Shown piece after piece: positions 9,742-51,324 of a DNA stretch of 64,000 nt. Source of the DNA: Variovorax gossypii (lineage in GTDB: Bacteria > Pseudomonadota > Gammaproteobacteria > Burkholderiales > Burkholderiaceae_C); contig NZ_RXOE01000005.1 in assembly GCF_003965815.1 (NCBI RefSeq), positions 1 to 64,000 of the forward strand, given 5' to 3'. The notes under the pieces were generated by a model. It worked only from the letters and a program-made list of their open reading frames with translations, had not been told where the DNA came from and did no database searches. The translations under genes and the position numbers were made by a program. Position 1 is the first letter of the stretch, and every line of letters begins with the position of its first letter.

Positions 9742-10185
9742 CTAGCCAGCACCCCGTACTGCCGACACGGCAGCACGCAAGGCGAGCAGGTAGCTGTCCA
9801 GCCCGAAGCCGCAGATCTGGCCCTTCACGAGGTCCGCGAACACCGAGTGATGCCGGAACTCCTCGCGCGCGTGGATGTTGGACATGTGCAGTTCGATCAC
9901 TGGTACCGTGAGGATCGCCAGCGCATCCCGGATGCCGTAGCTGTAGTGCGTCCATGCGCCGGCGTTGATCAGGACCGCGTCGACGCCATCCGCGAAACCC
10001 TGATGGATGCGCTCGCACATGGCGCTTTCGCTATTGGTCTGGAAGCACTCGACCTCCGCGTCGAGTTCCATGCCCAGCGCCTGCAGCTTCGCGTTGATCT
10101 CGGCGAGCGTCGTGGTGCCGTACTGCTTCGGATCGCGCTTGCCGAACATGTTGTGGTTGATGCCGTGGAGCATGAGGATCTTCAT
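9742..10185 (-). CDS. aroQ: Type II 3-dehydroquinate dehydratase
   Basis: A 147-residue protein, the normal size of the type II (dodecameric) enzyme that converts 3-dehydroquinate to 3-dehydroshikimate. The catalytic Arg and Tyr are present in FGKRDPKQYG, the Asn in LINAGAWTHYS, and the His in ELHMSNIHAREEFRHHS. The opening is unusual: HGINHNMFGKR replaces the canonical NGPNLNLLGxR, so the substrate lid may differ. It is the last gene of a six-gene operon with a shikimate dehydrogenase homologue and CoA-ester genes, which points to a catabolic or side-pathway paralogue rather than the housekeeping enzyme. Confidence 0.85.
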   Translation of the reverse strand: MKILMLHGINHNMFGKRDPKQYGTTTLAEINAKLQALGMELDAEVECFQTNSESAMCERIHQGFADGVDAVLINAGAWTHYSYGIRDALAILTVPVIELHMSNIHAREEFRHHSVFADLVKGQICGFGLDSYLLALRAAVSAVRGAG

Positions 10186-10210
10186 GGGATCTTTCCTTCT
10201 TGTCGCGGCC

Positions 10211-11032
10211 TCAAGCCAGCGGGATGGTCATGCGCTCGATGACCGCACGGGTGTCGGGCCTCACGCCGCGCCACCACAGGAAGGCTTCCGCCGCCTGCTC
10301 GACCAGCATGCCCACGCCGTCGGCAAGCTTGGGCACGCCGGCGTTCTGCGCCAGGCGCAAGAAGGGCGTCAGGCCCTTGCCGTAGGCCAGTTCATAGGCG
10401 AGCGTCGCGTTCTGGAGGGCCTCCGCCGGCACCGGCGGCAGTTCGGCCTTCAGGCTGGCCGAGGTGCCGTTGATCACGATGTCGAATCGCTCCCCGGCCA
10501 GGTCTGCGTAGGCGCAGGCGCGCAGGGGGCCATGCACCGCGAACTGCGCAGCCAGATCGTCCGCCTTCGACAAGGTGCGGTTCGCGAGCACCAGTTCTGC
10601 CGGCTGCTGTGCCAGAAAGGGCAACAGGGCTCCGCGCACCGCACCGCCCGAGCCGAGGACCAGCATGCGCGCGCCCTTCAGCGAGAAACCCAGGTTGCTC
10701 TGAATGTCCCTGGTCAACCCCACGCCGTCAAAGTTGTCGGCAATGATGCGGTCGCCCTCGAACTTGAGCGCATTGGTGGCACCGGCCAACTCGGCACGTT
10801 CCAGCCGCTCGGTCGCCAGGGCCAGCGCCTGCAGCTTGAACGGCGCCGTCACGTTCAGGCCCAGCCCGCCCGCCTTGCGAAACGCGTGCACGTCGTCCGA
10901 GAAGCGCTCGAGCGAGCCTTCGATGGCGCCGTATTCGATGTCCTGGCCAGTCGCCTTCGCAAAGCTGCGGTGGATCAGCGGCGACTTGGTGTGGCCGATG
11001 GGATTGCCGATGACGGCGTAGCGATCGCTCAT
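10211..11032 (-). CDS. aroE: Shikimate dehydrogenase family protein
   Basis: A 273-residue protein from the ATG at 11032. It shows the AroE opening YAVIGNPIGHTKSPLIH, the catalytic-lysine motif NVTAPFK, the Asp of ADNFDGVGL, and the NADP-binding loop LVLGSGGAVRGALLPF, ending with DGVGMLVEQAAEAFLWWRG. These enzymes interconvert 3-dehydroshikimate and shikimate. It lies 13 bases after the CoA-transferase and 25 bases before aroQ in one operon. In this context it may act in quinate/shikimate use or on a related hydroxy acid. Family is secure; physiological direction is not. Confidence 0.87.
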   Translation of the reverse strand: MSDRYAVIGNPIGHTKSPLIHRSFAKATGQDIEYGAIEGSLERFSDDVHAFRKAGGLGLNVTAPFKLQALALATERLERAELAGATNALKFEGDRIIADNFDGVGLTRDIQSNLGFSLKGARMLVLGSGGAVRGALLPFLAQQPAELVLANRTLSKADDLAAQFAVHGPLRACAYADLAGERFDIVINGTSASLKAELPPVPAEALQNATLAYELAYGKGLTPFLRLAQNAGVPKLADGVGMLVEQAAEAFLWWRGVRPDTRAVIERMTIPLA

Positions 11033-11045
11033 GCGGCCCTCCTCC

Positions 11046-12275
11046 TCATGCGCTGTAGAGAACGCCGTCGGCCTGCATCTCGGCGATCTGGGCGGCGTCG
11101 TAGCCCAGGCTCGCGGCGATCTCGGCGTTGTGCTCGCCGAGCTCGGGCGCCACCTGCGTGATCGAGGTGTCGCAGCTCGACATGCGGAAAGGCAGGTTGG
11201 GCAGGCGGATCTTGCCCAGCACCGGGTGCTCCTGCTCCACCACCATGCCGCGCGCCTGGATCTGCGGGTCGGCCAGCACTTCGTCGATGCGCTGCACCTT
11301 GGCGCAGGGCACGTCGATGCCGTCGAGCATCCCCAGGATCTCGGCCACGGGGCGCTGCGCCACCCACGGGCGGACCACCTCGAGGATTTCCAGGCGTCTC
11401 GCGTTGCGCCCGGCCGCATCGTGCAGGCGCGTGTCGCCTCCGAAGCCGGCGGGTCCGCCGTTGCGCTCGACCAGGGCGGCGAAGCGTTTCCATGCATCGT
11501 CGACCTGCGCGGCGATGACCAGGTCGCCGTCCTGTGCACGGAACACGCCGTACAGGGTCGAATTGGGCATGTCGTGGCCGGTCTGCACCGGCACTTCCTT
11601 GCCGCCCGACAGCGTGTAGCACTGCACCGCGTATTCGTGCATCGACACCAGCGTGTCGTACAGCGCCATGTCGATGTGCTGCCCGCGGCCCGACCTCACG
11701 CGGCCCAGCAGCGCGGCGTTGATCGCCGCCACGGCGTGGATGCCGGTGTACATGTCGCCGAGCGAGATGCGCAGCAGCGGCGGCGCCTCGCCGGGATTGC
11801 CGACCATCTGCATGATGCCGCTCTTGGCCTCGGCAATGAGACCGAAGCCGGCGCGGTGCGAGTCCGGCCCCGTATGGCCGTACGCGGAGATCGAGCAGTA
11901 GACGAGGCCTGGATTGGTCTCGGCCAGCTCCGCATAGCCCAGGCCCAGCTTGTCCAACGCACCGGGGCGATAGTTCTCGACGAACACATCGGCGCTGTCG
12001 ACCAGCTTCTTCATCAGGGCACGGCCGCGCGGGTCCTTGGTGTTGACCGACAGGCCCTTCTTGCCCATGTTCTGCTGCAGGAAGTAGCCGCTGTGGTCGC
12101 CGACGAACCAGGCGTGCTGACGCCCCGCATCGCCGGAGCCGGGGCGCTCCACCTTGATGACTTCGGCGCCCAGCGCGGCCAGGCACCGGCCCACATAGGG
12201 CCCGGCGAGGAAGTGGCTGTAGTCGATGACGCGGATTCCCGCCAGCGGCAATGCCTGCCGTGCCGCCGCGTTCAT
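11046..12275 (-). CDS. CaiB/BaiF family CoA-transferase
   Basis: A 409-residue protein from the ATG at 12275, which overlaps the stop of the MaoC gene upstream by four bases. It has the family III CoA-transferase signature: GIRVIDYSHFLAGPYVGR, LGAEVIKVERPGSGD, FVENYRPGALDKLGLGYAEL and GQHIDMALYDTLVSM. These cytosolic enzymes move CoA between carboxylic acids through mixed anhydrides. Beside a MaoC hydratase it probably activates an unsaturated or hydroxylated acid (itaconate- or mesaconate-type pathways use such pairs). Confidence 0.9.
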   Translation of the reverse strand: MNAAARQALPLAGIRVIDYSHFLAGPYVGRCLAALGAEVIKVERPGSGDAGRQHAWFVGDHSGYFLQQNMGKKGLSVNTKDPRGRALMKKLVDSADVFVENYRPGALDKLGLGYAELAETNPGLVYCSISAYGHTGPDSHRAGFGLIAEAKSGIMQMVGNPGEAPPLLRISLGDMYTGIHAVAAINAALLGRVRSGRGQHIDMALYDTLVSMHEYAVQCYTLSGGKEVPVQTGHDMPNSTLYGVFRAQDGDLVIAAQVDDAWKRFAALVERNGGPAGFGGDTRLHDAAGRNARRLEILEVVRPWVAQRPVAEILGMLDGIDVPCAKVQRIDEVLADPQIQARGMVVEQEHPVLGKIRLPNLPFRMSSCDTSITQVAPELGEHNAEIAASLGYDAAQIAEMQADGVLYSA

Positions 12276-12733
12276 GCCGGCCTCCTGGGCACCATCACGC
12301 GATGCTCGCCCTTCTGCACGACTTCGTCGCGCTGGTTGATCAGCTCGGACGGCAGCACCAGGATGCCCCAGCCGGGCTTGCTCTTCGATTCGCGCTTGGA
12401 CTCGACGCGGAATCTCACCCGCACCGTGTCGCCGAGCTTGATGGGCACGACGAAGCTCCATTCCCAGCCCAGCGACATGCCGGGCACGAAGCGCATGTCG
12501 CTCCTGGTCTTCAGGCCGTCGGCGATCGAAAGGCCGAAGAGGCCGTGGGCCACGCGGGTGCCGAAAGGCGTGGTGCGGGCGTAGGCCTCGTCGGTATGCA
12601 CGGGCGTGTGGTCGCCCGTGAGATCGGCGTAGGCCATCACGCGGGCTTCCGTCACTTCGTACGACGGGCTGATGCATTCCTCGCCGACGACGGCGTCGTC
12701 CCAGTACTTGTCTTCGATGGTGAGTGTGTTCAT
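12272..12733 (-). CDS. MaoC-family (hot-dog fold) enoyl-CoA hydratase
   Basis: A 153-residue single hot-dog domain from the ATG at 12733. The catalytic segment ADLTGDHTPVHTDEAYARTTPFG has the Asp/His pair and is followed by RVAHGLFGLSIADGL, the hallmark of MaoC-type (R)-specific hydratases. Such enzymes hydrate 2-enoyl-CoA esters. It overlaps the CoA-transferase start by four bases and follows the VOC gene by 26 bases, so the two act on one CoA ester. Confidence 0.88.
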   Translation of the reverse strand: MNTLTIEDKYWDDAVVGEECISPSYEVTEARVMAYADLTGDHTPVHTDEAYARTTPFGTRVAHGLFGLSIADGLKTRSDMRFVPGMSLGWEWSFVVPIKLGDTVRVRFRVESKRESKSKPGWGILVLPSELINQRDEVVQKGEHRVMVPRRPA

Positions 12734-12759
12734 GTGTGGGTCTCCGGTTCGAGCAGGGC

Positions 12760-13152
12760 TCAGGCGCGGGGATCGATCGCCAGCGCCTTGGCAACGGCCC
12801 CGGGGCTGGCCTGGATGAATTCGACGGCCAGGCCATCGGGCAGGCGCAGCCAGTTGCGGCCCTGCGGCATCTCCGTGACGCCGAAGGCCTTTGCGGCGGC
12901 CAGTGCGGCCTCGAGGTCTTCGCACATCACGCCCAGGTGGCCCAGCCGCCCTTCGGGGCCGGCGTAATCGGGCTTGGCCATGAACTGCATGCCCCCGAGC
13001 GTCCAGTACTGGATCGGCTCTTCGACGGTGCCCTGCACTTCCCGCATCGTCATGCCGCACACATCGTGGAAGAACTTGATGTGCCAATGGATGTCGCGCA
13101 CCCAGATGGCGACATGCTCGACATAGGCTTTAGGCGTGACCTGTGAGGTCAT
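12760..13152 (-). CDS. VOC (glyoxalase/dioxygenase superfamily) protein
   Basis: A 130-residue protein with the paired beta-alpha-beta-beta-beta modules of the vicinal-oxygen-chelate fold: EHVAIWVRDIHWHIKFFHDV at the start and GRLGHLGVMCEDLEAALAAA in the second half. Metal ligands are plausibly the His in EHVAIWV and the His in LGHLGV. It may be an epimerase, lyase or dioxygenase-type enzyme. It overlaps the ketopantoate-reductase-like gene by four bases. Substrate unknown. Confidence 0.8.
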   Translation of the reverse strand: MTSQVTPKAYVEHVAIWVRDIHWHIKFFHDVCGMTMREVQGTVEEPIQYWTLGGMQFMAKPDYAGPEGRLGHLGVMCEDLEAALAAAKAFGVTEMPQGRNWLRLPDGLAVEFIQASPGAVAKALAIDPRA

Positions 13153-14078
13153 CTCGCCTCCATGCGGCGCTCGATGCCCTTGATCGCGGCGACCAGCGTC
13201 TGGTTGACCGGTGTCGGTATGTTGTATTTCCGGCCGATGCGCACGACCGCGCCGTTGATGAAGTCAATCTCGGTGATCGAGCCTTTTTCCAGGCTCTGCA
13301 GCATCGAGGTCTTGAATGCGTAGGGCAGCCCCTGCGCAGCCATCAGCCAGGCGTCGCGCGGCGCCTTGATCGACAGCTTCACGCCGCCGGCCTCTGCAAC
13401 GGTCATGGCCTCGGTCACCGCGGCGATGGCCGTGACTTCAATCTCCGGTACCGTATAGAGACTGCCGTAGACTTGGCCGGTGATGCCGCTGAGCGCGCCG
13501 GTTGCGACGTTGATCAGAAGCTTGTCCCACATCGCGCCGAGGATGTTGTCGCTGACCTCACAAGGCAGCTCGGCGCGCTCGAACTCGGCGGCGATCGCCT
13601 TGGCGCGCTCGCTGATACGGCCGTCGATCTCGCCGATCACGGTGCGCTTGCCCTGCGTGCCGGCAATGACATGGCCAGGGCCGAGCATCACGCCGCCGAC
13701 GTAGGTCTTGCCGGCGAGGACATGCCCTGCGCCCACCACCTCCGAGAGGATTTCTTCATGGCCCATGCCGTTCTGCAGCGACATCACGGCTGTGTGGGGG
13801 CCCGCGATGTCTCGCGCGCCTTCGATGGCTGCTCGCGTATGGAAGGACTTGACCAGCACGATGAGGAGGTCCGGAGGCTCCAGCTTCGCGCAGTCGAGCG
13901 CGGCGCGGACCCGGACGACGCGCTCCGAATCACCAACCCTCATGCGCAGGCCGTCGCGGTTGATCGCGTCGACGTGGGCCTGGAAGGGGTCGATCAATGT
14001 GACATCGGACCCCGCTGCGGCAAGGGTCCCGCCGATGGCGCAACCCAATGCCCCGGCACCGAGAAAGTAGATCTTCAT
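13149..14078 (-). CDS. Ketopantoate reductase family oxidoreductase, first gene of the aroQ operon
   Basis: A 309-residue protein with the Rossmann motif IYFLGAGALGCAIGGTLAAAG, the LIVLVKSFHTRAAIE segment, SLQNGMGHEE, and the C-terminal NILGAMWDKLLINVATGALS helix of PanE-type enzymes. It heads the operon opposite a LysR regulator. As for the other family member at 2511-3407, use on a 2-keto acid other than ketopantoate is likely, given CoA-transferase and hydratase partners. Confidence 0.87.
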   Translation of the reverse strand: MKIYFLGAGALGCAIGGTLAAAGSDVTLIDPFQAHVDAINRDGLRMRVGDSERVVRVRAALDCAKLEPPDLLIVLVKSFHTRAAIEGARDIAGPHTAVMSLQNGMGHEEILSEVVGAGHVLAGKTYVGGVMLGPGHVIAGTQGKRTVIGEIDGRISERAKAIAAEFERAELPCEVSDNILGAMWDKLLINVATGALSGITGQVYGSLYTVPEIEVTAIAAVTEAMTVAEAGGVKLSIKAPRDAWLMAAQGLPYAFKTSMLQSLEKGSITEIDFINGAVVRIGRKYNIPTPVNQTLVAAIKGIERRMEAR

Positions 14079-14153: not shown

Positions 14154-14170
14154 CATTTCATTTTGAAATG
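14154..14170. promoter_or_regulatory. LysR operator-like palindrome in the divergent promoter
   Basis: A perfect inverted repeat, CATTTCA-ttt-TGAAATG, lies in the 102-base gap between the operon (start 14078) and the LysR gene. Position just upstream of the lysR start and arm length fit an autoregulatory LysR-type site. Only one copy is seen. Confidence 0.6.
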
Positions 14171-14180
14171 GAGATGCCGC

Positions 14181-15137
14181 TTGGACAATGACGACGACAT
14201 CGAAGGCGACGCGTCCCTTCTCAGCAGCAAGCTGCTGCGCCTGTTCGACCTGCTCTACAGCACGAACAGCGTAACGCGGGCCGGGGAGGCGATGGGCCAG
14301 AGCCAGCCGACCGTGAGCAACTGGCTTGGAAGGCTGCGCCGGCAGCTGGGCGACGAACTTTTCGTGCGCACCACCACCGGCATGCAGCCCACGCCGCGCG
14401 CACAGGAGCTGATCGTGCCGGTGCGAGAAGCCCTGGCCGCGCTGCGTCGCGTGGCCGCGCCCGCCGAAGCCTTCGCCCCGTCGGTCGCCACGCGGCGCTT
14501 TCGGATCTGCATGACGGATGCCAGCCACATCACCCTGCTGCCGCGCTTGCTGGCGCATGTGCGCGCGGTCGCGCCCGGCGTTCGCCTGGAGGCCGCGCGC
14601 ATCGACGAGCAAACGGCCCAGGCGCTGGAATCCGGCGAGGCGGATCTCGCGATCGGCCTGGTGCCCCAGCTCGAATCGGGCTTCTACCAGCAGGTTCTTT
14701 ATCCACAGGACTGGGTGTGCCTCGTCAATGCACGCCACCCTCGCATCGGCCTCAAGGGATTGGGCCTGCGCGAATACAAGGTCGAGGCCCATGTCGGCAT
14801 CGTCGGGGGCACCGGCGCTCAGTTGCTGGAAGCCGCACTGCAGCGGCAAAAAGTCGAGCGGCGCGTCCTGTTGGAGCTGCCGGGGTTTCTTGGCCTTGCG
14901 GCCGTTGTATCCACAACCGACCTGATCGCGACCGTGCCGCGTCATATCGGCGAAACCCTCGCCAGCTCAGGTGGGAGCACCTTGAAGGTTCACGATTGTC
15001 CGGTGCGAGTGCCGCCGTTCACCGTCAAACAGCACTGGCACGTCCGATACCACCAAGACCCAGCCAGTCGCTGGTTGCGCACGGTGTGCGAGGAGTTGTT
15101 TGCGCCCAAGCCCTTGAAGGCCAAGCCACGGAGCTAG
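14181..15137 (+). CDS. LysR-family transcriptional regulator
   Basis: The TTG at 14181 gives a 318-residue protein with a purine-rich ggag at 14170-14173 in front; an upstream TTG at 14163 in the palindrome is less likely. Residues ~15-75 form the winged helix with SVTRAGEAMGQSQPTVSNWL and LGDELFVRTTTGMQPTPRA. Residues ~95-300 are the periplasmic-binding-like effector domain (RFRICMTDASHITLLPRLLA). It probably activates the divergent ketopantoate-reductase-to-aroQ operon in response to a pathway acid. Confidence 0.88.
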   Translation: MDNDDDIEGDASLLSSKLLRLFDLLYSTNSVTRAGEAMGQSQPTVSNWLGRLRRQLGDELFVRTTTGMQPTPRAQELIVPVREALAALRRVAAPAEAFAPSVATRRFRICMTDASHITLLPRLLAHVRAVAPGVRLEAARIDEQTAQALESGEADLAIGLVPQLESGFYQQVLYPQDWVCLVNARHPRIGLKGLGLREYKVEAHVGIVGGTGAQLLEAALQRQKVERRVLLELPGFLGLAAVVSTTDLIATVPRHIGETLASSGGSTLKVHDCPVRVPPFTVKQHWHVRYHQDPASRWLRTVCEELFAPKPLKAKPRS

Positions 15138-18950: not shown

Positions 18951-20141
18951 TCATTCCGACTGGTCGCCCGGAACGAACACTTGCCCGTCCATCAACCGGC
19001 GGGCACTGCGGCTCATGAGCGCCTTGGTGACGGTCCATGTTCCATTGGCTTCCACCGCCTCCGCACCCACGGTCAGCGTGCCGGAGGGATGACCGAAGCG
19101 GACCTCCCTGCGTTGCCCCTCGCCGAGAACGCGCGCGACGAGCGTGCCGGGGATCGCAGCGGCCACCGCGATCGCCACAGCGCCGGTACCCGTCATCGCA
19201 TGGTGCAGCTTGCCCATCGAAAAGATCCGCGCGCAAAGGTCAATGTCCGCAGCCGCGACCTCCTTGCCGCTGGATGCAACATAGCCAGCAGGCGGCGCGA
19301 CGAACGCGAGCTTTGGCGTATGCGGTCGCTTCTCGGTCGCCTCCGCCGCGGTCTTCGCCAACCCCATGGCCACGGTCGCATGGACCCGGATCGCCTCGCA
19401 GCGCGCGAGAAGCACCGCGTTGCCGTTCACGGCCGGCTGCAGTTCCGCGCCCGTCAGCCCCAGGCTCGAGGCGTCCACGAAGATCGTCGGATTGCCTGCA
19501 TTGATGAGCGTCGCCTCGATGACCCCGACACCGGGGACGTCGACGGCGTCCAGCATGCGCCCCGTGGGAAACATGGCCCCGCCCTCACCATCGTCATCGG
19601 CGCCGGGCTCCAGGAATTCGAGCTTGATCTCTGCGGCCGGGAAGGTCACGCCATCGAGCTCGAAGTCGCCCGTCTCCTGAACGGCGCCATTGCGCATCGG
19701 GACATGCGCGATGATCTTCTTCTGGATGTTGGCCTGCCAGATGCGAACGACGGCCACGCCGTCGGCAGGCGCGTCAACCAGTCCGCTCGCGATCGCGAAC
19801 GGCCCGACCGCAGAGGTGAGATTGCCGCAGTTGCCGCTCCAGTCCACGACCGGGGACCCGATGGCGACGGCGCCGAAGAGATAGTCGACATCGCAACCGG
19901 CCTGCGTGCTCGGGCCGACGATCACGACCTTGCTGGTGCTGGAGGTGGCACCGCCCATGCCGTCGATCTGTTTCTCGTACGGGTCGGGACTGCCGGCGAC
20001 GCGCAGCATCAACGCATCGCGGGCCGCACCCGGGCGTTGCGCGGTTTCGGGAAGATCGCGCGAGGCGAAGAAGATGCCCTTGCTGGTACCGCCACGCATG
20101 TAGGTGGCACGGATGCCGATCTGGGGAGAAGAAGTGCTCAT
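18951..20141 (-). CDS. PrpF-family isomerase (2-methylaconitate / aconitate / 4-oxalomesaconate type)
   Basis: A 396-residue protein with the family hallmark IRATYMRGGTSKGIFFASRD and QIDGMGGATSSTSKVVIVGP, DWSGNCGNLTSAVGPFAI and GMGKLHHAMTGTGA-like segments (SMGKLHHAMTGTGAV). PrpF proteins have two diaminopimelate-epimerase-like halves and move a double bond in small tricarboxylates. Characterised members act on 2-methylaconitate, and PrpF has been crystallised with trans-aconitate; others are 4-oxalomesaconate tautomerases. In this locus, with an aconitase and a citrate-type transporter, cis/trans-aconitate isomerisation is the best guess. Confidence 0.85.
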   Translation of the reverse strand: MSTSSPQIGIRATYMRGGTSKGIFFASRDLPETAQRPGAARDALMLRVAGSPDPYEKQIDGMGGATSSTSKVVIVGPSTQAGCDVDYLFGAVAIGSPVVDWSGNCGNLTSAVGPFAIASGLVDAPADGVAVVRIWQANIQKKIIAHVPMRNGAVQETGDFELDGVTFPAAEIKLEFLEPGADDDGEGGAMFPTGRMLDAVDVPGVGVIEATLINAGNPTIFVDASSLGLTGAELQPAVNGNAVLLARCEAIRVHATVAMGLAKTAAEATEKRPHTPKLAFVAPPAGYVASSGKEVAAADIDLCARIFSMGKLHHAMTGTGAVAIAVAAAIPGTLVARVLGEGQRREVRFGHPSGTLTVGAEAVEANGTWTVTKALMSRSARRLMDGQVFVPGDQSE

Positions 20142-21232
20142 GGTGTTCCTTGAATGAAAACGATGCAGACCGGACTGCCTGCGCGCGCCAATGTGCGATG
20201 AGGGGTTGAAGTGCCTGGCTCGATGCCGACGATCGTGTCCGCGTCCTCATTGGCGATCAGGGTGCCGGCGAGGATGCCGGCGCCTTGGGGCATGGCCGAG
20301 ATGAAGCGCGGCACGCGTCCTTGCGCGTCGAACCACGCGGGTGCATGCAGCGTGTGGCGCGTCTCGTCGATCGCCAGCCGCACCACGCTGCCATGGCCAC
20401 GGTTCGACACCCAGATCGCGGCGTCGGCAGCGTCCAGGACGATGCCCGACCCCGTGTTCTCGCCCACGAAACTCTCCGGGATGCTGGGAATGCGCTGAAC
20501 CGGCGTCAGGCGTCCGCTCTCCGCGTCGAAGGCAGCCGAGACGATCTGGCTCGTGAGTTCGAAGACGATCCAGGCACGACAGCCCCCGGCATCGAACACC
20601 AGGTGCCGCGGGCCGCTGCCGGGCGGGACCTGCAGCGACGCCGCAAGACGCAGGGCACCTGTGGATTCGTCGAAGGCGAGCGTGTGGATGGCATCGCCCC
20701 CCTTGTCCGGAACCAGGAGCCATCGGCCCGAGGGATCGAAGACCACCTGGTGAGGATGCGCGCCTTTCTGCTGCGTCCTGTGGGGGCCCTGTCGGTCGGG
20801 CAAAGCGAGGCTGTGCACAACGGCGCCCAGCGAGCCGTCCGGCAGGACCGGCAACGACACCACCGTTGCGCTCGCGTAGTTCGATACCAGCAGCCAGCGC
20901 CCTTGTGGACTGAAAGCCAGATGCACGGGGTTGCGCCCCTGCGTGGAGTGCGTGCCCCGAAGCGACAGCGCGCCGTCGAGGCCCACTTGGAAGCTGCTCA
21001 CGGCAGTGCCGTCGCCGTGCACGCAGTAAAGGTTGCGCCCTTGCTTGTCCGCCAGAAGGTACGACGGGTTGTCCCCTGCGACCACCGTCTGCAGATGCTT
21101 CCATGGCCCCTCGGGAGTCACCTCGAAGACCTCGATGCCTTGACCGCGCGCTGCGCGCTCCTGCGTGGTGCGGCAGCCCACGTAGGCACGCAGCGCGCAG
21201 GCTTCACGAGTGGGGTACGGATTCGTCTCCAT
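20138..21232 (-). CDS. Lactonase family protein (6-phosphogluconolactonase-like beta-propeller)
   Basis: A 364-residue protein that looks like a seven-bladed propeller: YVGCRTTQERAARGQGIEVF at the start, then repeats such as HLAFSPQGRWLLVSNYASAT, HQVVFDPSGRWLLVPDKGGD and RHLVFDAGGCRAWIVFELTS. Such cytosolic enzymes (YkgB/Pgl-type) open sugar or organic-acid lactones. It overlaps the PrpF gene by four bases and is the first gene of that operon, so it may hydrolyse a lactone of the same acid (a tricarboxylate or muconolactone type). Confidence 0.85.
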   Translation of the reverse strand: METNPYPTREACALRAYVGCRTTQERAARGQGIEVFEVTPEGPWKHLQTVVAGDNPSYLLADKQGRNLYCVHGDGTAVSSFQVGLDGALSLRGTHSTQGRNPVHLAFSPQGRWLLVSNYASATVVSLPVLPDGSLGAVVHSLALPDRQGPHRTQQKGAHPHQVVFDPSGRWLLVPDKGGDAIHTLAFDESTGALRLAASLQVPPGSGPRHLVFDAGGCRAWIVFELTSQIVSAAFDAESGRLTPVQRIPSIPESFVGENTGSGIVLDAADAAIWVSNRGHGSVVRLAIDETRHTLHAPAWFDAQGRVPRFISAMPQGAGILAGTLIANEDADTIVGIEPGTSTPHRTLARAGSPVCIVFIQGTP

Positions 21233-21254
21233 GTCTTGACCGTTCTTTAGATTG

Positions 21255-21271
21255 AATTATATGATCACTTT
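21255..21271 (-). promoter_or_regulatory. Candidate GntR operator upstream of the lactonase-prpF operon
   Basis: Read on the minus strand this is aaagtgatcatataatt. It matches aaagtgattagaaaata at 23412-23428 in 13 of 17 positions, including the block AAAGTGAT. Both sites sit in promoter-like AT-rich gaps of the same module, one for the lactonase/prpF operon (or the divergent Bug gene) and one before the Bug-aconitase operon. Confidence 0.5.
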
Positions 21272-21327
21272 AGACATTCGGCAATCAGACCGATTGCCGG
21301 GGTCCCACCCCACCAGGAGACAACGAG

Positions 21328-22314
21328 ATGAATCCGATTCGACGCAGGAGCCTCCTGCAGGCGAGCGCTGCGGCGCTGCCGCTTTCCGTGGCCGGGAAAT
21401 GGGCCTTCGCCCAGGACAGGTTCCCCAGCAAGCCCATCACGCTGATCGTTCCGCAGCCGGCGGGCGGTGATGCGGACGTGGTCTGCCGCAGCCTGCAGAA
21501 GAAGATGCAGGACGTTCTGGGGCAACCGGTGGTCATCGACAACCGAGGAGGCGCAGGCGGAAACATCGGCACCGCGCTGGGTGCCAAGGCCGCGCCGGAC
21601 GGGTACACGCTCACATTCGTGAACCAGGGCACCATGGCGCTGAACCCGTCGCTCTATCCGAATGCCGGTTACAAGGTCGAGAGCCTCGCGCCGGTGACCT
21701 GGCTGACGTCCATCGACCTGGTCATCGTGGCCCACCCGTCCGTGCCGGCAGGCAACCTGAAGGAATTCCTCGAGCTCGCGCGCAAGGAGCCGGGCAGGCA
21801 CACCTACGGCACCGCGGGCAACGGAAGCGCCAACCACCTGGCCGGCGAGATGCTCAAGTCCATGGCCAAGGTCGACATCACGCACGTGCCCTACAAGGGC
21901 GGGGGGCCGGCGATCATTGCCTTGCTCGGCGGGGAGATCAGCATTGCCGTCGCCTTCCCATTGGCCGCGCTGCCGCACGTGCGCAGCGGCAAGCTCAAGG
22001 CGCTTGCGGTCACGGGAAAACAGCGCGCCAAGGCATTGCCCGACGTGCCGACTGTCGCGGAAAGCGGCGTCAGCGGCTACGAGTTCGTTTCCTGGATGGG
22101 CCTTGCCGTGCCAAGGGGAACGCCCGATCCGATCGTTCAGACCCTCCATGCGGCAGCGGCCGCCGCCCTGAAGGAGAAGGACGTCGCGGATCGGCTGTCC
22201 GCGGGCATGACCGAACCGGTGGGCGCGGGCCCCAAGGAATTCGGCGACCTCATCAGCCGGGAAGGGGCGCGATGGTCGAAGATGATCAAGCAGTTCGGCA
22301 TGAAGATCGACTGA
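21328..22314 (+). CDS. Bug-family tripartite tricarboxylate transporter substrate-binding protein (Tat-like leader)
   Basis: A 328-residue protein with a leader containing RRRSLLQASAAALPLSVAGK, a twin-arginine-type motif, then AQDRFPSKPITLIVPQPAGG. This is the TctC/Bug opening. Middle signatures are VIDNRGGAGGNIGTALGAKA, YGTAGNGSANHLAGEML and THVPYKGGGPAIIALLGGE. Bug proteins bind carboxylates in the periplasm; TctA/TctB membrane partners are not nearby, so it would work with distant permeases or a sensor. It diverges from the lactonase operon and precedes the GntR gene by 24 bases. Confidence 0.87.
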   Translation: MNPIRRRSLLQASAAALPLSVAGKWAFAQDRFPSKPITLIVPQPAGGDADVVCRSLQKKMQDVLGQPVVIDNRGGAGGNIGTALGAKAAPDGYTLTFVNQGTMALNPSLYPNAGYKVESLAPVTWLTSIDLVIVAHPSVPAGNLKEFLELARKEPGRHTYGTAGNGSANHLAGEMLKSMAKVDITHVPYKGGGPAIIALLGGEISIAVAFPLAALPHVRSGKLKALAVTGKQRAKALPDVPTVAESGVSGYEFVSWMGLAVPRGTPDPIVQTLHAAAAAALKEKDVADRLSAGMTEPVGAGPKEFGDLISREGARWSKMIKQFGMKID

Positions 22315-22338
22315 TCCTTGCTGGCCTAGACTACGCGG

Positions 22339-23268
22339 ATGCCATCGGTGAATGACACTGCGACCGCCCCCGAACTGACCTCGCTGCAGCAGCGCGTCGC
22401 GCGCGAGATCGTCGCGCTCGTGCGGCGCGACAACCGCGTCACCGGCGACCACCTGACCGAGGTGCACATCGCGCAGCACATCGGGACGTCTCGCTCCCCC
22501 GTGCAATCGGCGCTGCGCCATCTGGCACACCTGGGGGTGCTGCAGCAGGACGCCAACCGCGGCTATTTCCTGCGTGTCGACGCCAAGCATTGGGACGGGC
22601 CCGTGGCGAGCCTGCTGTCGAGCGACGACCCGCTCTACCTGCGGATCGCCGAGGACCGGCAGTCCAAGGAGCTGCCGGACGAGGTGACGGAGGCCGAGTT
22701 GATGCGCCGGTACGGCGTGGCCCGCAGCACGCTGCGCAAGGTCTTGTCGCGCATCTCCGAAGAGGGCTGGATCGAGCAGAGCATGGGCCACGGCTGGCGC
22801 TTCCTCGCGATGATCGACTCCCCCGACGCCTACGAGGAGAGCTACCTTTTCCGGCAGTTCATCGAACCGGGCGGGCTGATCGGGCCCTCGTTCATGCCCG
22901 TTGCCCACGAGCTCAAGCAGTTGCGCAATGAGCAGCAGCGGATCGTCGACGGCGGCTACCAGACGATGACGCCCATCGAGCTCTTCGAGGCCAACAGCCA
23001 TTTCCACGAAACCCTGGCCGAGTGGAGCAACAACCGCTTCGTGCTCCAGTCGGTGCGGCGCATCAACCAGCTGCGTCGTCTCGTGGAGTACCGCCAGGCC
23101 TCGCGCCGCGGGGCGCGCCACACGCAGGCCTCCGAGCACCTGGAGATCCTGGATGCCATCGAGAAGCAGGACTTCGTGCTGGCCGCCAGCCTCATGAGGT
23201 CTCACCTCGACGGCGCGCGCCGCGGCAAGCTGCGCGGCACCGGCGTGTTTTCCCCATCCTCCTCCTAG
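22339..23268 (+). CDS. GntR-family regulator with two winged-helix domains and an FCD-type domain
   Basis: A 309-residue protein, longer than a usual FadR/VanR-type GntR regulator (~230-240). A first winged helix (residues ~15-75) contains VHIAQHIGTSRSPVQSALRH. A second (residues ~105-155) contains ELMRRYGVARSTLRKVLSRI and EEGWIEQSMGHGWRFL. The rest is an all-helical FCD-like domain with ELFEANSHFHETLAEWSNNR and NQLRRLVEYRQASRR, which usually binds carboxylates with a metal. It follows a Bug gene by 24 bases and is surrounded by tricarboxylate genes, so it likely regulates this module. Confidence 0.83.
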   Translation: MPSVNDTATAPELTSLQQRVAREIVALVRRDNRVTGDHLTEVHIAQHIGTSRSPVQSALRHLAHLGVLQQDANRGYFLRVDAKHWDGPVASLLSSDDPLYLRIAEDRQSKELPDEVTEAELMRRYGVARSTLRKVLSRISEEGWIEQSMGHGWRFLAMIDSPDAYEESYLFRQFIEPGGLIGPSFMPVAHELKQLRNEQQRIVDGGYQTMTPIELFEANSHFHETLAEWSNNRFVLQSVRRINQLRRLVEYRQASRRGARHTQASEHLEILDAIEKQDFVLAASLMRSHLDGARRGKLRGTGVFSPSSS

Positions 23269-23500
23269 CAGCGCCACCCCAGACTTGATCCTGGAAGCCC
23301 TCCAGCCTGCCCCTCCCCCGTGCGGCTGAGCACCGCTGCGCCCCTGGCGGCGACGGACAAGCAAGAAAAGTTACAGCACCGCGCAGGGTTTACCCGCGCC
23401 TTGTATTGGTGAAAGTGATTAGAAAATACAATATAGCGAAATGTGCAGCATCGGATTGCACGCATCGCGGCCCCACTCACCCCACGAGAAGGAGACATCC
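23269..23500. promoter_or_regulatory. Promoter region of the Bug-aconitase-transporter operon with GntR-like site
   Basis: A 232-base gap. At 23401-23440 the DNA is AT-rich (ttgtattgg then gaaagtgattagaaaataca). The segment 23412-23428 matches the site at 21255-21271. A ribosome site (gaaggagac, 23488-23496) precedes the ATG at 23501. The region ttgtatt...aatacaa (23401-23431) also forms an inverted repeat with a long spacer. Confidence 0.5.
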
Positions 23501-24463
23501 ATGCAGCTTTCGATCCGCAAACTGCTTCGCATCGGCACGCTCGCCGGCGCACTCGTCGCGGCCTTGCCCGCGCTCGCACTGGAGACGGTGCGCTTCATGG
23601 CGCCAGGCTCGCCAGGCGGCGGCTACGACCAGACCGCCCGCACCCTCGGCAAGGCCATGCAGGAGGCCGGCGTGGCCAAGAGCGCGATGTACGACAACAA
23701 GAATGGCGCGGGCGGAACCCTGGGCCTTGCCCAGTTCGTCAACAGCTCCAAGGGGGACGTCAACGCCCTGTGCGTGATGGGCGCGATCATGGTGACCGGG
23801 GTCGTGCAGAACAAGCCGCAGATCTCGCTGGCCAACGCCACGCCGATCGCACGGCTCTTCACGGAATACAACGTGATCGCCGTGCGCAAGGACTCGCCCT
23901 ACCGGAGCTTCAACGACCTGATGGCCGACTTCAAGAAGAACCCTTCCAGCGTGAAGTGGGGTGGCGGCTCGAAGGGTTCGGTCGATCACATCGGCACGGC
24001 CGAGCTCGCCGGCGCGGCCGGCATCCCTGTCTCGAAGGTCAACTACATCCCGTTCGGCGGTGGGGGCGAGGTCGTCTCCGCAACGCTGGGCGGCCACATC
24101 ACAGCCATCACGGGCGGCTACGCGGAGCTGTCGAAGTACATCGAGGCGGGCCAGTTCCGTGTGCTCGCCGTCGGCGCCCCCACCCGCATGCCGGGCGTGG
24201 ACGCCCCCACGCTGAAGGAAACCGGCTACGACATGCAGATCGGCAACTGGCGTGGTGTCTACGGCGCGGCCAACCTCACCCCGGCCCAGCGCAAGGAACT
24301 CACGGACGCCGTCCTTGCAGCGACCCGGACCAAGGGATGGCAGGACGCCGTGAAAGCCAATGCCTGGTCGCCCAGCGTGATCACCGGTGACGAGTTCTCG
24401 AAGTTCGTCGACGACGAGCACACGCGCCTGCGCTCCGTCATGACCCATGTCGGTCTGATTTGA
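23501..24463 (+). CDS. Tripartite tricarboxylate transporter substrate-binding protein (TctC-like)
   Basis: A 320-residue protein from the ATG at 23501, chosen because gaaggagac lies 5-13 bases upstream. A Sec leader (LLRIGTLAGALVAALPALAL) is followed by ETVRFMAPGSPGGGYDQTAR, a TctC-type start, and GGHITAITGGYAELSKYIEA, VRKDSPYRSFNDLMADF. It is more like genuine citrate-type TctC than the Bug proteins. It leads into the aconitase gene 49 bases on. TctA/TctB are missing, and a CitMHS permease is present instead. Confidence 0.87.
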   Translation: MQLSIRKLLRIGTLAGALVAALPALALETVRFMAPGSPGGGYDQTARTLGKAMQEAGVAKSAMYDNKNGAGGTLGLAQFVNSSKGDVNALCVMGAIMVTGVVQNKPQISLANATPIARLFTEYNVIAVRKDSPYRSFNDLMADFKKNPSSVKWGGGSKGSVDHIGTAELAGAAGIPVSKVNYIPFGGGGEVVSATLGGHITAITGGYAELSKYIEAGQFRVLAVGAPTRMPGVDAPTLKETGYDMQIGNWRGVYGAANLTPAQRKELTDAVLAATRTKGWQDAVKANAWSPSVITGDEFSKFVDDEHTRLRSVMTHVGLI

Positions 24464-24512
24464 CGCCCTCTTTGCTCCCCTGCCCCGCCAGGGCACCCAC
24501 GAAGGAATACGA

Positions 24513-27290: not shown

Positions 27291-27461
27291 CCGGCGGGAG
27301 CCGGTCTCCCGAGCCATTCATTCCTTCGTTCGCCCTCGTCGCGGCGGCCAGGCAGCCGCCGCGGGGGTGACTGCTGCCCATCGAGCGCCCGTCAAGCAGA
27401 CAAACGCGTCCCGCCTGGCGCGCCACGATCCGTCCGGGCCTTCCTCATATCGAGACCACAC
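27291..27461. other. Intergenic between aconitase and CitMHS transporter
   Basis: A 171-base gap within an apparent operon. It contains the inverted, GC-rich segments ggcggcc and ggcagccgccgcggg, which could form a stem but lack a T-run. No clear ribosome site precedes the ATG at 27462. Confidence 0.3.
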
Positions 27462-28775
27462 ATGCTGACCATCCTCGCGTATTCCATGATCATCGTCTTC
27501 ATGGCGCTGCTCATGACGGGGCGCCTCACCGCGCTCATTGCACTGATCGTCGTACCGATCATCTTCGCCCTGATCGGTGGATTCGGGGCGGATGTCGGCC
27601 CCATGGTGATCAACGGCATCAAGGCCATTGCGCCCACCGGCGTGCTGCTGCTTTTCGCGATCCTCTACTTCGGCCTGATGATCGACGTCGGCCTGTTCGA
27701 TCCGTTGATCCGGCTCATCGTGCGAATGTCCAAGGGTGATCCGGTGCGCGTCATCATCGGCTCGGCGTTGCTCGCGCTGGTCGTTTCCCTGGACGGCGAC
27801 GGTTCCACAACCTACCTGCTGTGCGTCACCGCCATGCTGCCGCTGCACCGGCGACTGGGCATCAACCCGCTGATCCTCCCCTGCGTCACGATGATGGGCA
27901 ACAGCATCATGAACATCGCGCCGTGGGGTGGTCCGACCGCACGCGTCATGAGCGCACTGCACGTCGACGCCTCGCAGGTCTTCGTTCCACTCATCGGGCC
28001 GATGGCCATGGCAAGCGCGGCCACGATCGCCGTGGCGTGGTACCTCGGAGTGAGGGAGCGCCGGCGTCTGAAGACGGTCGAGTGGAAGCCGGTGCACGCT
28101 GAAGTCTCTGCCCTTGGCGGGGAAGTGAACCTTGACGCCGCGCAAGCACCTCACCAAAGCCGAGCGAAGATGGCTTTCAATCTGGCACTGACCCTGGTGT
28201 TGATGGCCTGCCTGACGATGGCCGTGCTCCCGTTGCCCTTGCTCTTCATGGGTGCGTTCGCCATCGCGATCTCGGTCAACTTCCCCGCGATCAAGGACCA
28301 GAAGGAACGCATTGCCGAGCACTCGGCAAGCGCCCTTTCGGTGGTGGCCGTGATCTTCGCGGCGGGCGTGTTCACCGGGATCCTCTCCGGCACCAAGATG
28401 ACCGATGCGATCGCGCACAGCGTCATCAACGCGATTCCCGCTTCGGCCGGCCACTACCTGCCGCTGATCACCGCGTTGCTCAGCGCGCCGATGACGTTCT
28501 TCCTTTCCAATGACGCTTTCTATTTCGGGGTCGTGCCGATCCTTGCGGAAGCGGCAAAGGGCTACGGCATTGCGCCCGAAATCATTGCACGCGCATCACT
28601 GCTCGGACAACCGGTGCATCAGCTCAGCCCCTTGGTGGCCGCCAACTATGTGCTGATGGGTGTGGCAGGCGTCGAATTCGGTGCGCACCAGAAGTTCACC
28701 CTCAGATGGGCATTGCTGCTGGTCGTCGTCATGATCGTCGCTGCCGGGCTCTTCGGCATCGTGCCACTTCTCTAG
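27462..28775 (+). CDS. CitMHS-family citrate/metal-proton symporter
   Basis: A 437-residue protein with about 12 membrane segments. Signature stretches include MALLMTGRLTALIALIVVPI, ILYFGLMIDVGLFDPLIRLI, SLDGDGSTTYLLCVTAMLPL and MMGNSIMNIAPWGGPTARVM, all typical of the CitM/CitMHS family that imports metal-citrate complexes. It ends the aconitase operon (171 bases after). A substrate of citrate, tricarballylate or aconitate type is inferred from neighbours. Confidence 0.88.
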   Translation: MLTILAYSMIIVFMALLMTGRLTALIALIVVPIIFALIGGFGADVGPMVINGIKAIAPTGVLLLFAILYFGLMIDVGLFDPLIRLIVRMSKGDPVRVIIGSALLALVVSLDGDGSTTYLLCVTAMLPLHRRLGINPLILPCVTMMGNSIMNIAPWGGPTARVMSALHVDASQVFVPLIGPMAMASAATIAVAWYLGVRERRRLKTVEWKPVHAEVSALGGEVNLDAAQAPHQSRAKMAFNLALTLVLMACLTMAVLPLPLLFMGAFAIAISVNFPAIKDQKERIAEHSASALSVVAVIFAAGVFTGILSGTKMTDAIAHSVINAIPASAGHYLPLITALLSAPMTFFLSNDAFYFGVVPILAEAAKGYGIAPEIIARASLLGQPVHQLSPLVAANYVLMGVAGVEFGAHQKFTLRWALLLVVVMIVAAGLFGIVPLL

Positions 28776-44172: not shown

Positions 44173-44641
44173 AGCAGTTGCCCGGGCCTCGCGATGCCGC
44201 AGTTCCCCCTTGCCTTTCATGACGCATCATGTCGGCAAGCGGCCCATCAAGGTCATCCATTGACTGCCTGCTGCCGCGGGCTGGGCACGATCAGCGCTGA
44301 TTCGAATCATCGTCTGGGCGGAACAGGCATCAACCGCTTCTTCATCTGCAACCTTCCCCCCTGCCTGAGCGGCGGCTGGTGCGCTGCATCGACCCGCCGA
44401 ATCCGCCCTTGCGCCACTGCCATGGAATCCTTCGCTGGACAGCAAATCTCGCAGCAGAACAAAGCCATCTGCGAGATGCAGCAAGGGATCCGCGCGCAGG
44501 GAACATCGATGCGGTAGTACTTGCTTCCGACATTCCCTATTCGAATCGCGGGTTGAAGCTTGCGGCATGGCGGCAGGCAGTTTAGAAGGTCAATCACAAG
44601 CTTGGTTTGTGGCTCGCACGGAGCCGAGGGAGACCCAAGGA
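44173..44641. other. Region upstream of vgrG, no supported gene
   Basis: About 470 bases with open frames but no clear gene. A plus-strand piece near 44440-44515 reads QQISQQNKAICEMQQGIRAQ, which may be a decayed end of an unrelated protein. The vgrG promoter must be here. Confidence 0.35.
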
Positions 44642-46798: not shown

Positions 46799-46811
46799 GA
46801 GTCACGTCCCC

Positions 46812-50948: not shown

Positions 50949-51324
50949 AGAACGCGCGGCCCGCTTCGTTCACGCACTTCGTGGGGGCGCAGTACGCCTC
51001 CCTGCAAACGACCGTCGCTGTGGACCAGGCAGGTATGCTGTGAACGTCTCGCCGTTCCGCCTTGACCAGGGTTGGAGCCTGCGATCATCAGGAGGCGGCC
51101 GAGCATCCGACGAAGGCGACGCACTCCGCGAGGTTGAGGCGGCCAGCAGCAGGTACTTCTCGGCATCGGTGCGCCTGCTTCGACGCTTTCGGCGAGAAGA
51201 CAGGCTTTCGGACAATGCGCGCGAGGAAATCATGAACCAGTGCTTTGCGGGCGGCGACTACAACCATAAGCAACAGGCCGGCAACGTCTGGAACGCCTAC
51301 AAGAACTGCGCAGGCACGCCATGA
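50945..51324 (+). pseudogene. Broken or split Rhs tail (two short overlapping frames)
   Basis: An ATG at 50945 overlaps the Rhs stop and encodes MKNARPASFTHFVGAQYASL to a stop at 51041-51043 (32 residues). A GTG at 51040 overlaps that stop and opens a 94-residue frame to 51324, ending REEIMNQCFAGGDYNHKQQA then GNVWNAYKNC. That Cys/Gly/Asp/His pattern is like C-terminal ends seen on other Rhs proteins. I read the two as one toxin tail interrupted by a frameshift, although coupled small genes cannot be excluded. Confidence 0.5.

What the first reader, a model, noticed from the sequence alone, without database searches (positions are those of the whole stretch)
9742..14078. Aromatic-pathway enzymes (AroE, AroQ) in an operon with CoA-transferase, MaoC hydratase, VOC and ketopantoate-reductase-like genes
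Six genes with overlaps or gaps of at most 26 bases, one LysR regulator. The AroQ has a changed lid (HGINHNMFGKR) but keeps all catalytic residues. The mix of shikimate-type and CoA-ester enzymes does not match any pathway I know; it could convert a cyclic hydroxy acid into a CoA ester.
Basis: inference. Interest (0 to 1): 0.65.

Follow-up and report, generated by a model that had tools for sequence, protein, structure and literature searches.

The report
Operon for CoA-linked shikimate-type acid catabolism
A conserved soil-bacterial gene set joins enzymes that handle quinate and shikimate (plant ring acids) to enzymes that work on coenzyme-A esters, which points to a possibly undescribed route for breaking down plant ring acids and suggests a role for a shikimate dehydrogenase class with a solved structure.

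Summary
Six head-to-tail genes (window 9742-14078, minus strand) encode a PanE-type reductase, a VOC metalloprotein, a MaoC hydratase, a class III CoA-transferase, a shikimate dehydrogenase (AroE) and a type II dehydroquinase (AroQ), facing a LysR gene. It is not a local oddity: PanE-VOC-MaoC-CaiB is contiguous in 95 of 96 orthologous loci examined, with AroE next in 92 and AroQ after that in 44. Catalytic residues are intact. The AroE differs from a housekeeping-type copy elsewhere in the genome; its closest solved relative is 3pwz (recalled as the Ael1 class). Quinate/shikimate genes lie around many orthologous loci: 3-dehydroshikimate dehydratase QuiC, further shikimate-dehydrogenase-family genes, TRAP or ABC importers. 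In a sample of one bacterial family, 36 of 39 CoA-transferase orthologues lie within 9 kb of such a dehydrogenase; at three places an acyl-CoA dehydrogenase is found instead of PanE-VOC-MaoC. Best reading: catabolism of a hydroaromatic (shikimate-type) acid through CoA thioesters with shikimoyl-CoA as hub, running into 3-dehydroshikimate and protocatechuate. Substrate, direction and the roles of PanE and VOC are inferred. Ten literature searches in an open-access library found no description.

The parts
13149..14078 (-). PanE/ApbA-family reductase, first gene of the operon
   Evidence: TIGR00745 230.7 bits; K186, E270, N103, N190, S258 identical in 96 of 96 orthologues; AlphaFold model pLDDT 94.8, best fold hits ketopantoate reductases, then D-mandelate dehydrogenase
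12760..13152 (-). VOC (glyoxalase-fold) protein, likely metal enzyme
   Evidence: Glyoxalase_4 35.5 bits, no NCBIfam match at E 0.001; H13, Q56, H72, E111 identical in 96 of 96; model pLDDT 90.9, fold hits GloA2, glyoxalase I, FosA/FosB
12272..12733 (-). MaoC-type hydratase/dehydratase (ATG at 12733)
   Evidence: PF01575 76.7 bits; Asp and His of TGDHTPVH identical in 96 of 96; start codon checked
11046..12275 (-). Class III (CaiB-type) CoA-transferase; ATG at 12275 overlaps the MaoC stop by 4 bases
   Evidence: PF02515 376.6 bits; catalytic-type Asp of SLGDMYTG in 95 of 96, one not covered; start codon checked
10211..11032 (-). Shikimate dehydrogenase, 3pwz-like (recalled as Ael1 type)
   Evidence: NF001310 329.1 bits; best PDB match 3pwz 374 bits, next 262.9; K66 and D102 in 92 of 92, F101 in 91 of 92
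9742..10185 (-). Type II 3-dehydroquinate dehydratase (AroQ)
   Evidence: TIGR01088 179.1 bits; N10, R17, Y22 in 56 of 56; N74, H80, H100, R111 in 55 of 56, one not covered; best PDB match 6cv6
14154..14170 (.). Perfect palindrome CATTTC-N5-GAAATG between LysR and PanE, candidate operator
   Evidence: exact match once in the own genome as held; a perfect 6-bp inverted repeat of this type in 12 of 87 intergenic regions, 0.4% of shuffles
14163..15137 (+). Divergent LysR regulator; start uncertain (TTG at 14163 or 14181)
   Evidence: PF00126 and PF03466; TTG codons; a divergent LysR orthologue adjacent in 86 of 96 loci

Best explanation
This is a LysR-controlled catabolic operon for a hydroaromatic acid of the quinate/shikimate family. 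The class III CoA-transferase puts CoA on the ring acid, probably by exchange with the CoA ester of the product (shikimoyl-CoA), as CaiB does for carnitine and crotonobetaine (recalled). MaoC adds or removes water at the ring carbons next to the thioester. PanE changes the oxidation state of a hydroxyl, and the VOC metal enzyme isomerises or epimerises an intermediate. Shikimate leaving the cycle is oxidised by the AroE to 3-dehydroshikimate; AroQ feeds 3-dehydroquinate (from quinate) into the same pool; 3-dehydroshikimate goes on to protocatechuate. Shown here: gene content, order, intact active sites, neighbourhoods, and places where an acyl-CoA dehydrogenase is found instead of PanE-VOC-MaoC. 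Inferred: the substrate, shikimoyl-CoA as hub, the direction, control by LysR, and the roles of PanE and VOC.
For: PanE-VOC-MaoC-CaiB contiguous in 95 of 96 loci, AroE next in 92, AroQ next in 44, divergent LysR in 86 (one pair of the 96 is the same contig). In a 399-genome draw of the family 39 genomes hold the CaiB orthologue, at 40 places; of the 39 places outside the window 36 lie within 9 kb of a shikimate-dehydrogenase-family gene and 35 have PanE, VOC and MaoC nearby (the second CaiB of L182 counts in both only through the operon beside it). Three (L185, L186, L192) have an acyl-CoA dehydrogenase and no PanE/VOC/MaoC in the stretch; L192 also has a QuiC-type gene, AroE, AroQ and part of a second SDH-family gene. 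QuiC 3-dehydroshikimate dehydratase lies next to AroQ in L046, L049 and L180, and split QuiC pieces lie by the acyl-CoA dehydrogenase of L041. L142, a distant relative, has a second shikimate dehydrogenase (NF009201 436.5 bits, cut-off 235), an AroQ (42%) and Gfo/Idh in the same run. Bidomain QuiC: 6 of 13 genomes with the MaoC orthologue against 6 of 136 without, one-sided Fisher p 9e-5. All 18 genomes checked (17 with the core genes, plus G017) have a protocatechuate-dioxygenase marker: pcaH over cut-off in 5, LigA in 16. In L187, L188 and L189 another SDH-family gene (AroE2) sits between VOC and MaoC and no AroE of this type is seen. E. coli K-12 has ydiB-aroD-ydiF-ydiO, a similar mix of functions.
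Against: No CoA ester of shikimate or quinate is shown. All PanE-family enzymes I know act on 2-oxo/2-hydroxy acids, which a ring carbon bearing the carboxyl cannot become. No thioesterase, CoA ligase or dehydroshikimate dehydratase is in the operon, and the own genome (86% complete) has no clear QuiC. The LigA/pcaH base rate in the family was not measured. AroE homologues at 56-64% identity occur without the operon: 17 of the 30 genomes with a match lack the MaoC orthologue. AroQ is adjacent in fewer than half of the loci and tracks the other genes less well. L042 has no AroE or AroQ, and L179 has CaiB and LysR only. Two of the three acyl-CoA-dehydrogenase places (L185, L186) are near contig ends or cut stretches, and L192 has a scaffold gap after the second SDH gene.
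Confidence: 0.42

Rival explanations
1. Ring opening away from shikimate, like the bad-ali cyclohexane carboxylate pathway: AroQ and AroE make shikimate from 3-dehydroquinate, CaiB makes shikimoyl-CoA (already a cyclohexene-carboxyl-CoA), MaoC hydrates it, PanE oxidises the 2-hydroxyl, and the 2-oxo ring is opened and finished by beta-oxidation.
For: The reversed gene order roughly matches the step order; the operon alone would suffice up to the 2-oxo ester; shikimate is a hydroxylated cyclohexene carboxylate; the bad-ali steps are ligase, dehydrogenase, hydratase, dehydrogenase, ring hydrolase (PMC9795900, passages).
Against: No ring hydrolase of the BadI kind in the operon; the places with only an acyl-CoA dehydrogenase could not run it; dehydroshikimate-dehydratase genes cluster with some of the loci.
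Confidence: 0.23
2. Two halves of a plant ester such as chlorogenate: AroQ and AroE serve the quinate half, while CaiB, MaoC, VOC and PanE degrade the acyl half (a hydroxycinnamate or an aliphatic acid).
For: Quinate occurs in plants largely as such esters (general knowledge); MaoC plus a dehydrogenase would fit side-chain beta-oxidation.
Against: No esterase in the core; AroE is embedded with the CoA genes in 92 of 96 loci while AroQ follows in only 44; the one TRAP binding protein compared with solved structures is closest to small-acid types (ligand types partly recalled).
Confidence: 0.13
3. A pathway for a small branched acid (itaconate, mesaconate, citramalate type) with AroE and AroQ recruited for unrelated substrates.
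For: CaiB's best equivalogs are succinate-glutarate (267.4 bits) and mesaconate CoA-transferase (255.8); the closest solved relative is a hydroxymethylglutarate CoA-transferase.
Against: Those scores are far below the cut-offs of 750 and 700; MaoC scores 45.7 against 340 for RipB/Ich; many neighbours are quinate/shikimate genes.
Confidence: 0.07
4. Extra housekeeping aromatic-biosynthesis genes that happen to share an operon with CoA genes.
For: AroE and AroQ keep the canonical catalytic residues.
Against: A separate AroE lies on C7 beside genes I read as mtgA, tonB and rnb, and three further AroQ genes exist; AroE stays with the CoA genes across genera.
Confidence: 0.04

Closest known systems
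Ael1-class shikimate dehydrogenase (PDB 3pwz; class name recalled)
   Same: Closest solved relative by a wide margin (374 against 263 bits); same Lys/Asp pair and NFDG motif
   Different: Only the enzyme is described, as far as I recall; the operon with CoA genes is what is added here
Quinate/shikimate (qui) catabolism with QuiC
   Same: AroQ, shikimate-dehydrogenase-family genes and, in some relatives, QuiC and importers
   Different: The known route, as I recall it, needs no CoA-transferase, MaoC, PanE or VOC
E. coli ydiB-aroD-ydiF-ydiO cluster
   Same: Quinate/shikimate dehydrogenase, dehydroquinase, CoA-transferase and acyl-CoA dehydrogenase together
   Different: Dehydroquinase of the other type and another CoA-transferase family (recalled), no MaoC/VOC/PanE in the stretch; function not established to my knowledge
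Carnitine caiABCD cycle (recalled)
   Same: A CaiB-type transferase with a hydratase and an acyl-CoA dehydrogenase around one enoyl-CoA
   Different: Different substrates; MaoC fold instead of the crotonase fold
bad-ali cyclohexane carboxylate pathway (PMC9795900, passages)
   Same: Hydration and oxidation of a cyclohexene-carboxyl-CoA
   Different: Uses a CoA ligase and a ring hydrolase; no such gene is in this operon

Membership tests
Type II 3-dehydroquinate dehydratase | Profile score over the curated cut-off | tested here: met
   TIGR01088 179.1 against 169.85
Type II 3-dehydroquinate dehydratase | Catalytic Asn, Arg, Tyr, Asn, His, His, Arg (roles recalled) | tested here: met
   56 of 56, or 55 of 56 with one not covered
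Type II 3-dehydroquinate dehydratase | Activity on 3-dehydroquinate | not testable with these tools
   A P. putida enzyme (NP_745147.1) was active, kcat 78.87 per s and Km 617.28 uM (PMC4314829, sections 13 and 14); that it is this operon's AroQ is only my inference from recalled locus numbering
Ael1-class shikimate dehydrogenase | Closest to 3pwz, with the NFDG motif | tested here: met
   374 bits; F101 in 91 of 92
Ael1-class shikimate dehydrogenase | Lys/Asp catalytic pair | tested here: met
   92 of 92
Ael1-class shikimate dehydrogenase | Oxidises shikimate in vitro | not testable with these tools
   recalled for 3pwz; a DOI that I recalled for the paper is not held
Class III CoA-transferase | PF02515 match and catalytic Asp | tested here: met
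   376.6 bits; Asp in 95 of 96, one not covered
Succinyl-CoA:mesaconate CoA-transferase | NF041294 equivalog cut-off | tested here: not met
   255.8 against 700
Itaconate degradation RipB/Ich | NF038241 equivalog cut-off | tested here: not met
   45.7 against 340
MaoC hydratase | Asp/His dyad in the hot-dog motif | tested here: met
   96 of 96
Ketopantoate reductase family | TIGR00745 over cut-off and Lys/Glu pair | tested here: met
   230.7 against 141.35; 96 of 96
Ketopantoate reductase family | Acts on 2-dehydropantoate | not testable with these tools
   only the subfamily-level model is over its cut-off
Metal-dependent VOC enzyme | Four-ligand His/Gln/His/Glu set | tested here: met
   96 of 96; metal binding itself not tested
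Methylmalonyl-CoA epimerase | Match to a named family or solved epimerase | tested here: inconclusive
   no NCBIfam match at E 0.001; weak profile hit to 3rmu, E 0.0049, below several lactoylglutathione lyases
bad-ali pathway | CoA ligase AliA and ring hydrolase BadI | tested here: not met
   neither among the six operon genes; the rest of the genome was not searched for them
qui catabolism | 3-dehydroshikimate dehydratase in the same genome | tested here: inconclusive
   no bidomain QuiC among listed matches of the 86% complete own genome; one weak match, E 1.5e-5, to a TIM-barrel-like gene beside a second AroQ

The most novel reading that the evidence does not exclude
An undescribed, widespread CoA-thioester cycle for hydroaromatic acids with shikimoyl-CoA as hub. 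Interchangeable modules (MaoC-VOC-PanE or an acyl-CoA dehydrogenase) would let bacteria use hydrated or dihydro forms of shikimate, and the E. coli ydi cluster could be a distant parallel.
Probability: 0.4. Interest if true: 0.76.

Novelty: new variant of a known kind. Interest (0 to 1): 0.58.

Why it matters
If true, it adds a CoA-dependent branch to quinate/shikimate catabolism, a plant-carbon route of soil bacteria. It gives a physiological setting to a shikimate dehydrogenase class that has a structure but, as far as I recall, no known role, and it makes the puzzling E. coli ydiB-aroD-ydiF-ydiO linkage testable by analogy. The genes occur in Pseudomonas putida-group and Paraburkholderia strains, so simple knock-outs can test it.

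Tried and rejected
Regulon by operator search: the exact palindrome occurs once in the own genome, at this operon; the seven other places with one mismatch were not examined, so no further targets were named.

VOC function from fold: the top hits, glyoxalases and fosfomycin-resistance proteins, lie within about one Z unit of each other, so no function follows. Contexts of more distant MaoC paralogues (five loci) gave no pointer; one of them, L149, pairs an acyl-CoA dehydrogenase, a YdiF-type transferase and MaoC with no shikimate-dehydrogenase gene seen, so such CoA sets are not tied to shikimate genes in general. A phylum draw found the VOC orthologue in 4 of 398 genomes, own included, and none of four other genomes of the window's own genus has the CaiB orthologue: the set is patchy, and nothing was concluded from absence. 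Neighbour clustering over 96 loci added transporter, regulator and second dehydrogenase genes but no enzyme that completes the path; several of its clusters are spurious reading frames.

Against my reading: of the AroE homologues outside the operon (19 places: 17 genomes without the MaoC orthologue, plus extra copies in G052 and G064) I fetched 12. Five (L159, L160, L162, L163, L166) have AroQ, TRAP, AroE2 or QuiC-type genes near; L165 has only a weak TIM-barrel match and a LysR; in L156, L157, L158, L161, L164 and L167 my markers found none (L156 and L157 have a dioxygenase-like ORF by eye). These may be housekeeping copies in their genomes, which I did not test. The 96-locus counts hold one contig twice (L038 and L065) and L073 is the same contig as L170 of the later set. 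The loci were not in the 96-locus counts. The 80 loci are the best of 282 relatives at tblastn E 1e-3; the other 202 were not seen.

Papers: searches (listings seen) found none on this operon; searches used locus numbers recalled from memory. PMC9795900 (passages) and PMC4314829 (passages and sections 13-14) were read in part. The Ael1 and RifI2 papers are recalled, not seen.

Full report
The six genes are there as described. On the minus strand from 14078 to 9742 lie PanE, VOC, MaoC, CaiB-type CoA-transferase, AroE and AroQ, with a divergent LysR gene at 14163-15137. Junctions are -4, 26, -4, 13 and 25 bases, with CaiB starting at the ATG at 12275. The next called gene downstream begins 552 bases away.

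The set is conserved. A MaoC search found clear orthologues (68% identity or more) in 13 of 149 other genomes of the family, all 13 with PanE, VOC and CaiB adjacent. A scan of public genomes with a VOC alignment gave 282 relatives at tblastn E 1e-3, of which the best 80 were returned, in Variovorax, Pseudomonas, Burkholderia, Caballeronia, Paraburkholderia, Ralstonia, Cupriavidus and others. Among those 80, at more than 50% identity, PanE is in 80, MaoC 80, CaiB 79, LysR 79, AroE 78 and AroQ 44. Over 96 loci (13 family, 80 public, 3 from the phylum draw; L038 and L065 are the same contig) the four-gene core is contiguous in 95, with AroE next in 92 and AroQ after that in 44, and a divergent LysR adjacent in 86. 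Pairwise distances over 54 loci holding all seven genes correlate strongly for LysR, PanE and AroE (0.87-0.91) and less for AroQ (0.32-0.66). It is also patchy: the VOC orthologue is in 4 of 398 genomes of a phylum draw, and four other genomes of the window's own genus lack the CaiB orthologue.

All six proteins look active. Active-site positions (roles recalled) are identical in essentially all orthologues: AroE Lys66 and Asp102 in 92 of 92; AroQ Asn10, Arg17, Tyr22 in 56 of 56; the CaiB Asp in 95 of 96 with one not covered; the MaoC Asp/His pair in 96 of 96; VOC His13, Gln56, His72, Glu111 in 96 of 96; PanE Lys186 and Glu270 in 96 of 96. Clade marks are AroE Phe101 (91 of 92), where recalled canonical AroE has Thr, and AroQ Trp78 and Tyr81 (55 of 56, one not covered). 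The AroE's best solved relative is 3pwz at 374 bits, the next being 262.9. The P. putida NBRC 14671 locus (L095) begins with nearly the same residues as 3pwz, so I place it in the class recalled as Ael1.

There are other copies for housekeeping. The own genome holds three AroE-family genes and four AroQ genes. One AroE, on C7, is 42% identical to this one and lies beside genes that I read as mtgA, tonB and rnb. One AroQ on C7 is 87% identical to the operon's and lies with a Gfo/Idh gene, ABC genes (partly named by eye) and a TIM-barrel-like gene.

Neighbours of many orthologous operons speak for quinate/shikimate catabolism. In L041, L044, L046, L047 and L049 the cluster includes TetR, a TRAP importer, Gfo/Idh (upstream of the operon in L047), AroQ and either a second shikimate-dehydrogenase-family gene, AroE2 (L047's copy is nearest to 4k28), or QuiC. 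QuiC is the 3-dehydroshikimate dehydratase: L049 carries its first half at 480 bits, cut by the end of the fetched stretch, and L041 has split pieces beside its acyl-CoA dehydrogenase; L180 has it next to AroQ. The distant L142 has a second shikimate dehydrogenase (NF009201 436.5 bits, cut-off 235; the quinate/shikimate model NF010631 gives 291, below its 515), ABC-type genes, an AroQ (42%) and Gfo/Idh (46%) in one run. Bidomain QuiC, counted from the listed matches, occurs in 6 of 13 operon-bearing and 6 of 136 other family genomes, one-sided p 9e-5. Every one of 18 genomes checked has pcaH over cut-off (5) or LigA (16); the base rate was not measured.

The CoA-transferase is tied to these dehydrogenases more widely than the full operon. 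In 399 family genomes 39 have it, at 40 places. Of the 39 places outside the window, 36 lie within 9 kb of a shikimate-dehydrogenase-family gene, 35 near PanE, VOC and MaoC, and 6 near an acyl-CoA dehydrogenase (the second CaiB of L182 counts through the operon beside it). In three (L185, L186, L192) the acyl-CoA dehydrogenase is there without PanE, VOC or MaoC in the stretch held; L186 is a 6.6-kb contig and L185 was taken to 11.0 of 13.3 kb. L192 also has a QuiC-type gene (34% to the L049 piece), an HPPD-like gene, AroE, AroQ and part of a second SDH-family gene that runs into a scaffold gap. The L041 acyl-CoA dehydrogenase scores 242 bits to cyclohexane-1-carbonyl-CoA dehydrogenase and 293 to acryloyl-CoA reductase, both below cut-off. 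In L187, L188 and L189 AroE2 sits between VOC and MaoC and no AroE of the operon type is seen. E. coli K-12 shows ydiB-aroD-ydiF-ydiO, a comparable mix. A transferase served by either an acyl-CoA dehydrogenase or a hydratase, next to enzymes for shikimate, is what a CoA cycle around shikimoyl-CoA would need.

Against this: AroE genes of this type (56-64% identity) also occur away from the operon. Of 30 genomes with a match, 17 lack the MaoC orthologue; of 12 such places fetched, 5 had quinate/shikimate-type neighbours and 6 had none that my markers recognised. L042 has the four-gene core without AroE or AroQ, and L179 has CaiB beside LysR only.

How it may work (inference): CaiB moves CoA from shikimoyl-CoA to an incoming dihydro or hydroxy analogue; the acyl-CoA dehydrogenase, or MaoC helped by PanE and VOC, turns that ester into shikimoyl-CoA; released shikimate is oxidised by AroE to 3-dehydroshikimate, which AroQ also supplies from 3-dehydroquinate; QuiC or another dehydratase makes protocatechuate. 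PanE is the weak point, because all characterised relatives known to me use 2-oxo or 2-hydroxy acids. The main rival runs the other way, through hydration and oxidation to ring opening as in the bad-ali pathway (PMC9795900, passages).

Regulation: a perfect palindrome CATTTC-N5-GAAATG lies at 14154-14170 and occurs without mismatch only once in the genome as held, so LysR probably acts locally; binding is not shown.

Prior work: ten paper searches (listed under tried and rejected) returned nothing on this operon in the open library. One kinetic survey reports an active P. putida type II dehydroquinase, NP_745147.1 (PMC4314829), which may be this operon's AroQ by my recollection of locus numbering; this was not checked.

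Noticed in passing
window 63079-64000 and onward to own-genome C15 68379 (L052): A second hydroaromatic-looking locus about 49 kb away: DctP, a regulator (by eye), DctP, an AroQ 49% identical to the operon's, DctQ and DctM, followed further on by genes read by eye as pqqB/pqqC and a PQQ dehydrogenase.
   Followed up: partly
own genome C7:271825-277300 (L051): Gfo/Idh, ABC importer genes, a TIM-barrel-like gene and an AroQ 87% identical to the window AroQ: a possible uptake and dehydratase locus for the same compounds.
   Followed up: partly
window 18951-28775: PrpF, a 7-bladed lactonase, an aconitase and a CitMHS transporter, with binding-protein-like genes between them (by eye): looks like a tricarboxylate (aconitate/citrate-type) catabolic cluster.
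   Followed up: no
window 44567-51824: VgrG-like protein, a 1378-aa RHS-repeat protein and a small ORF without Pfam match, as in type VI secretion effector loci.
   Followed up: no
L040:12343-18435: ABC importer genes (partly by eye), a second MaoC (53%), a YdiF-type CoA-transferase and an AroE-family gene in a row beside the operon: another pairing of a CoA-transferase with a shikimate-dehydrogenase-family gene.
   Followed up: partly
L050:4310-11206 and L168:11366: An intradiol-dioxygenase-like gene next to the operon in two genomes, with an HpaH-like gene (348.6 bits, cut-off 351.5) and a dienelactone-hydrolase-like gene (by eye) in L050.
   Followed up: no
L171:9606 and Paraburkholderia/Caballeronia loci L116, L123, L086: A TIM-barrel gene related to 5-keto-L-gluconate epimerase (107 bits, below its cut-off of 300) lies inside the operon (L171) or beside AroE2 next to it; it could epimerise a keto intermediate.
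   Followed up: partly
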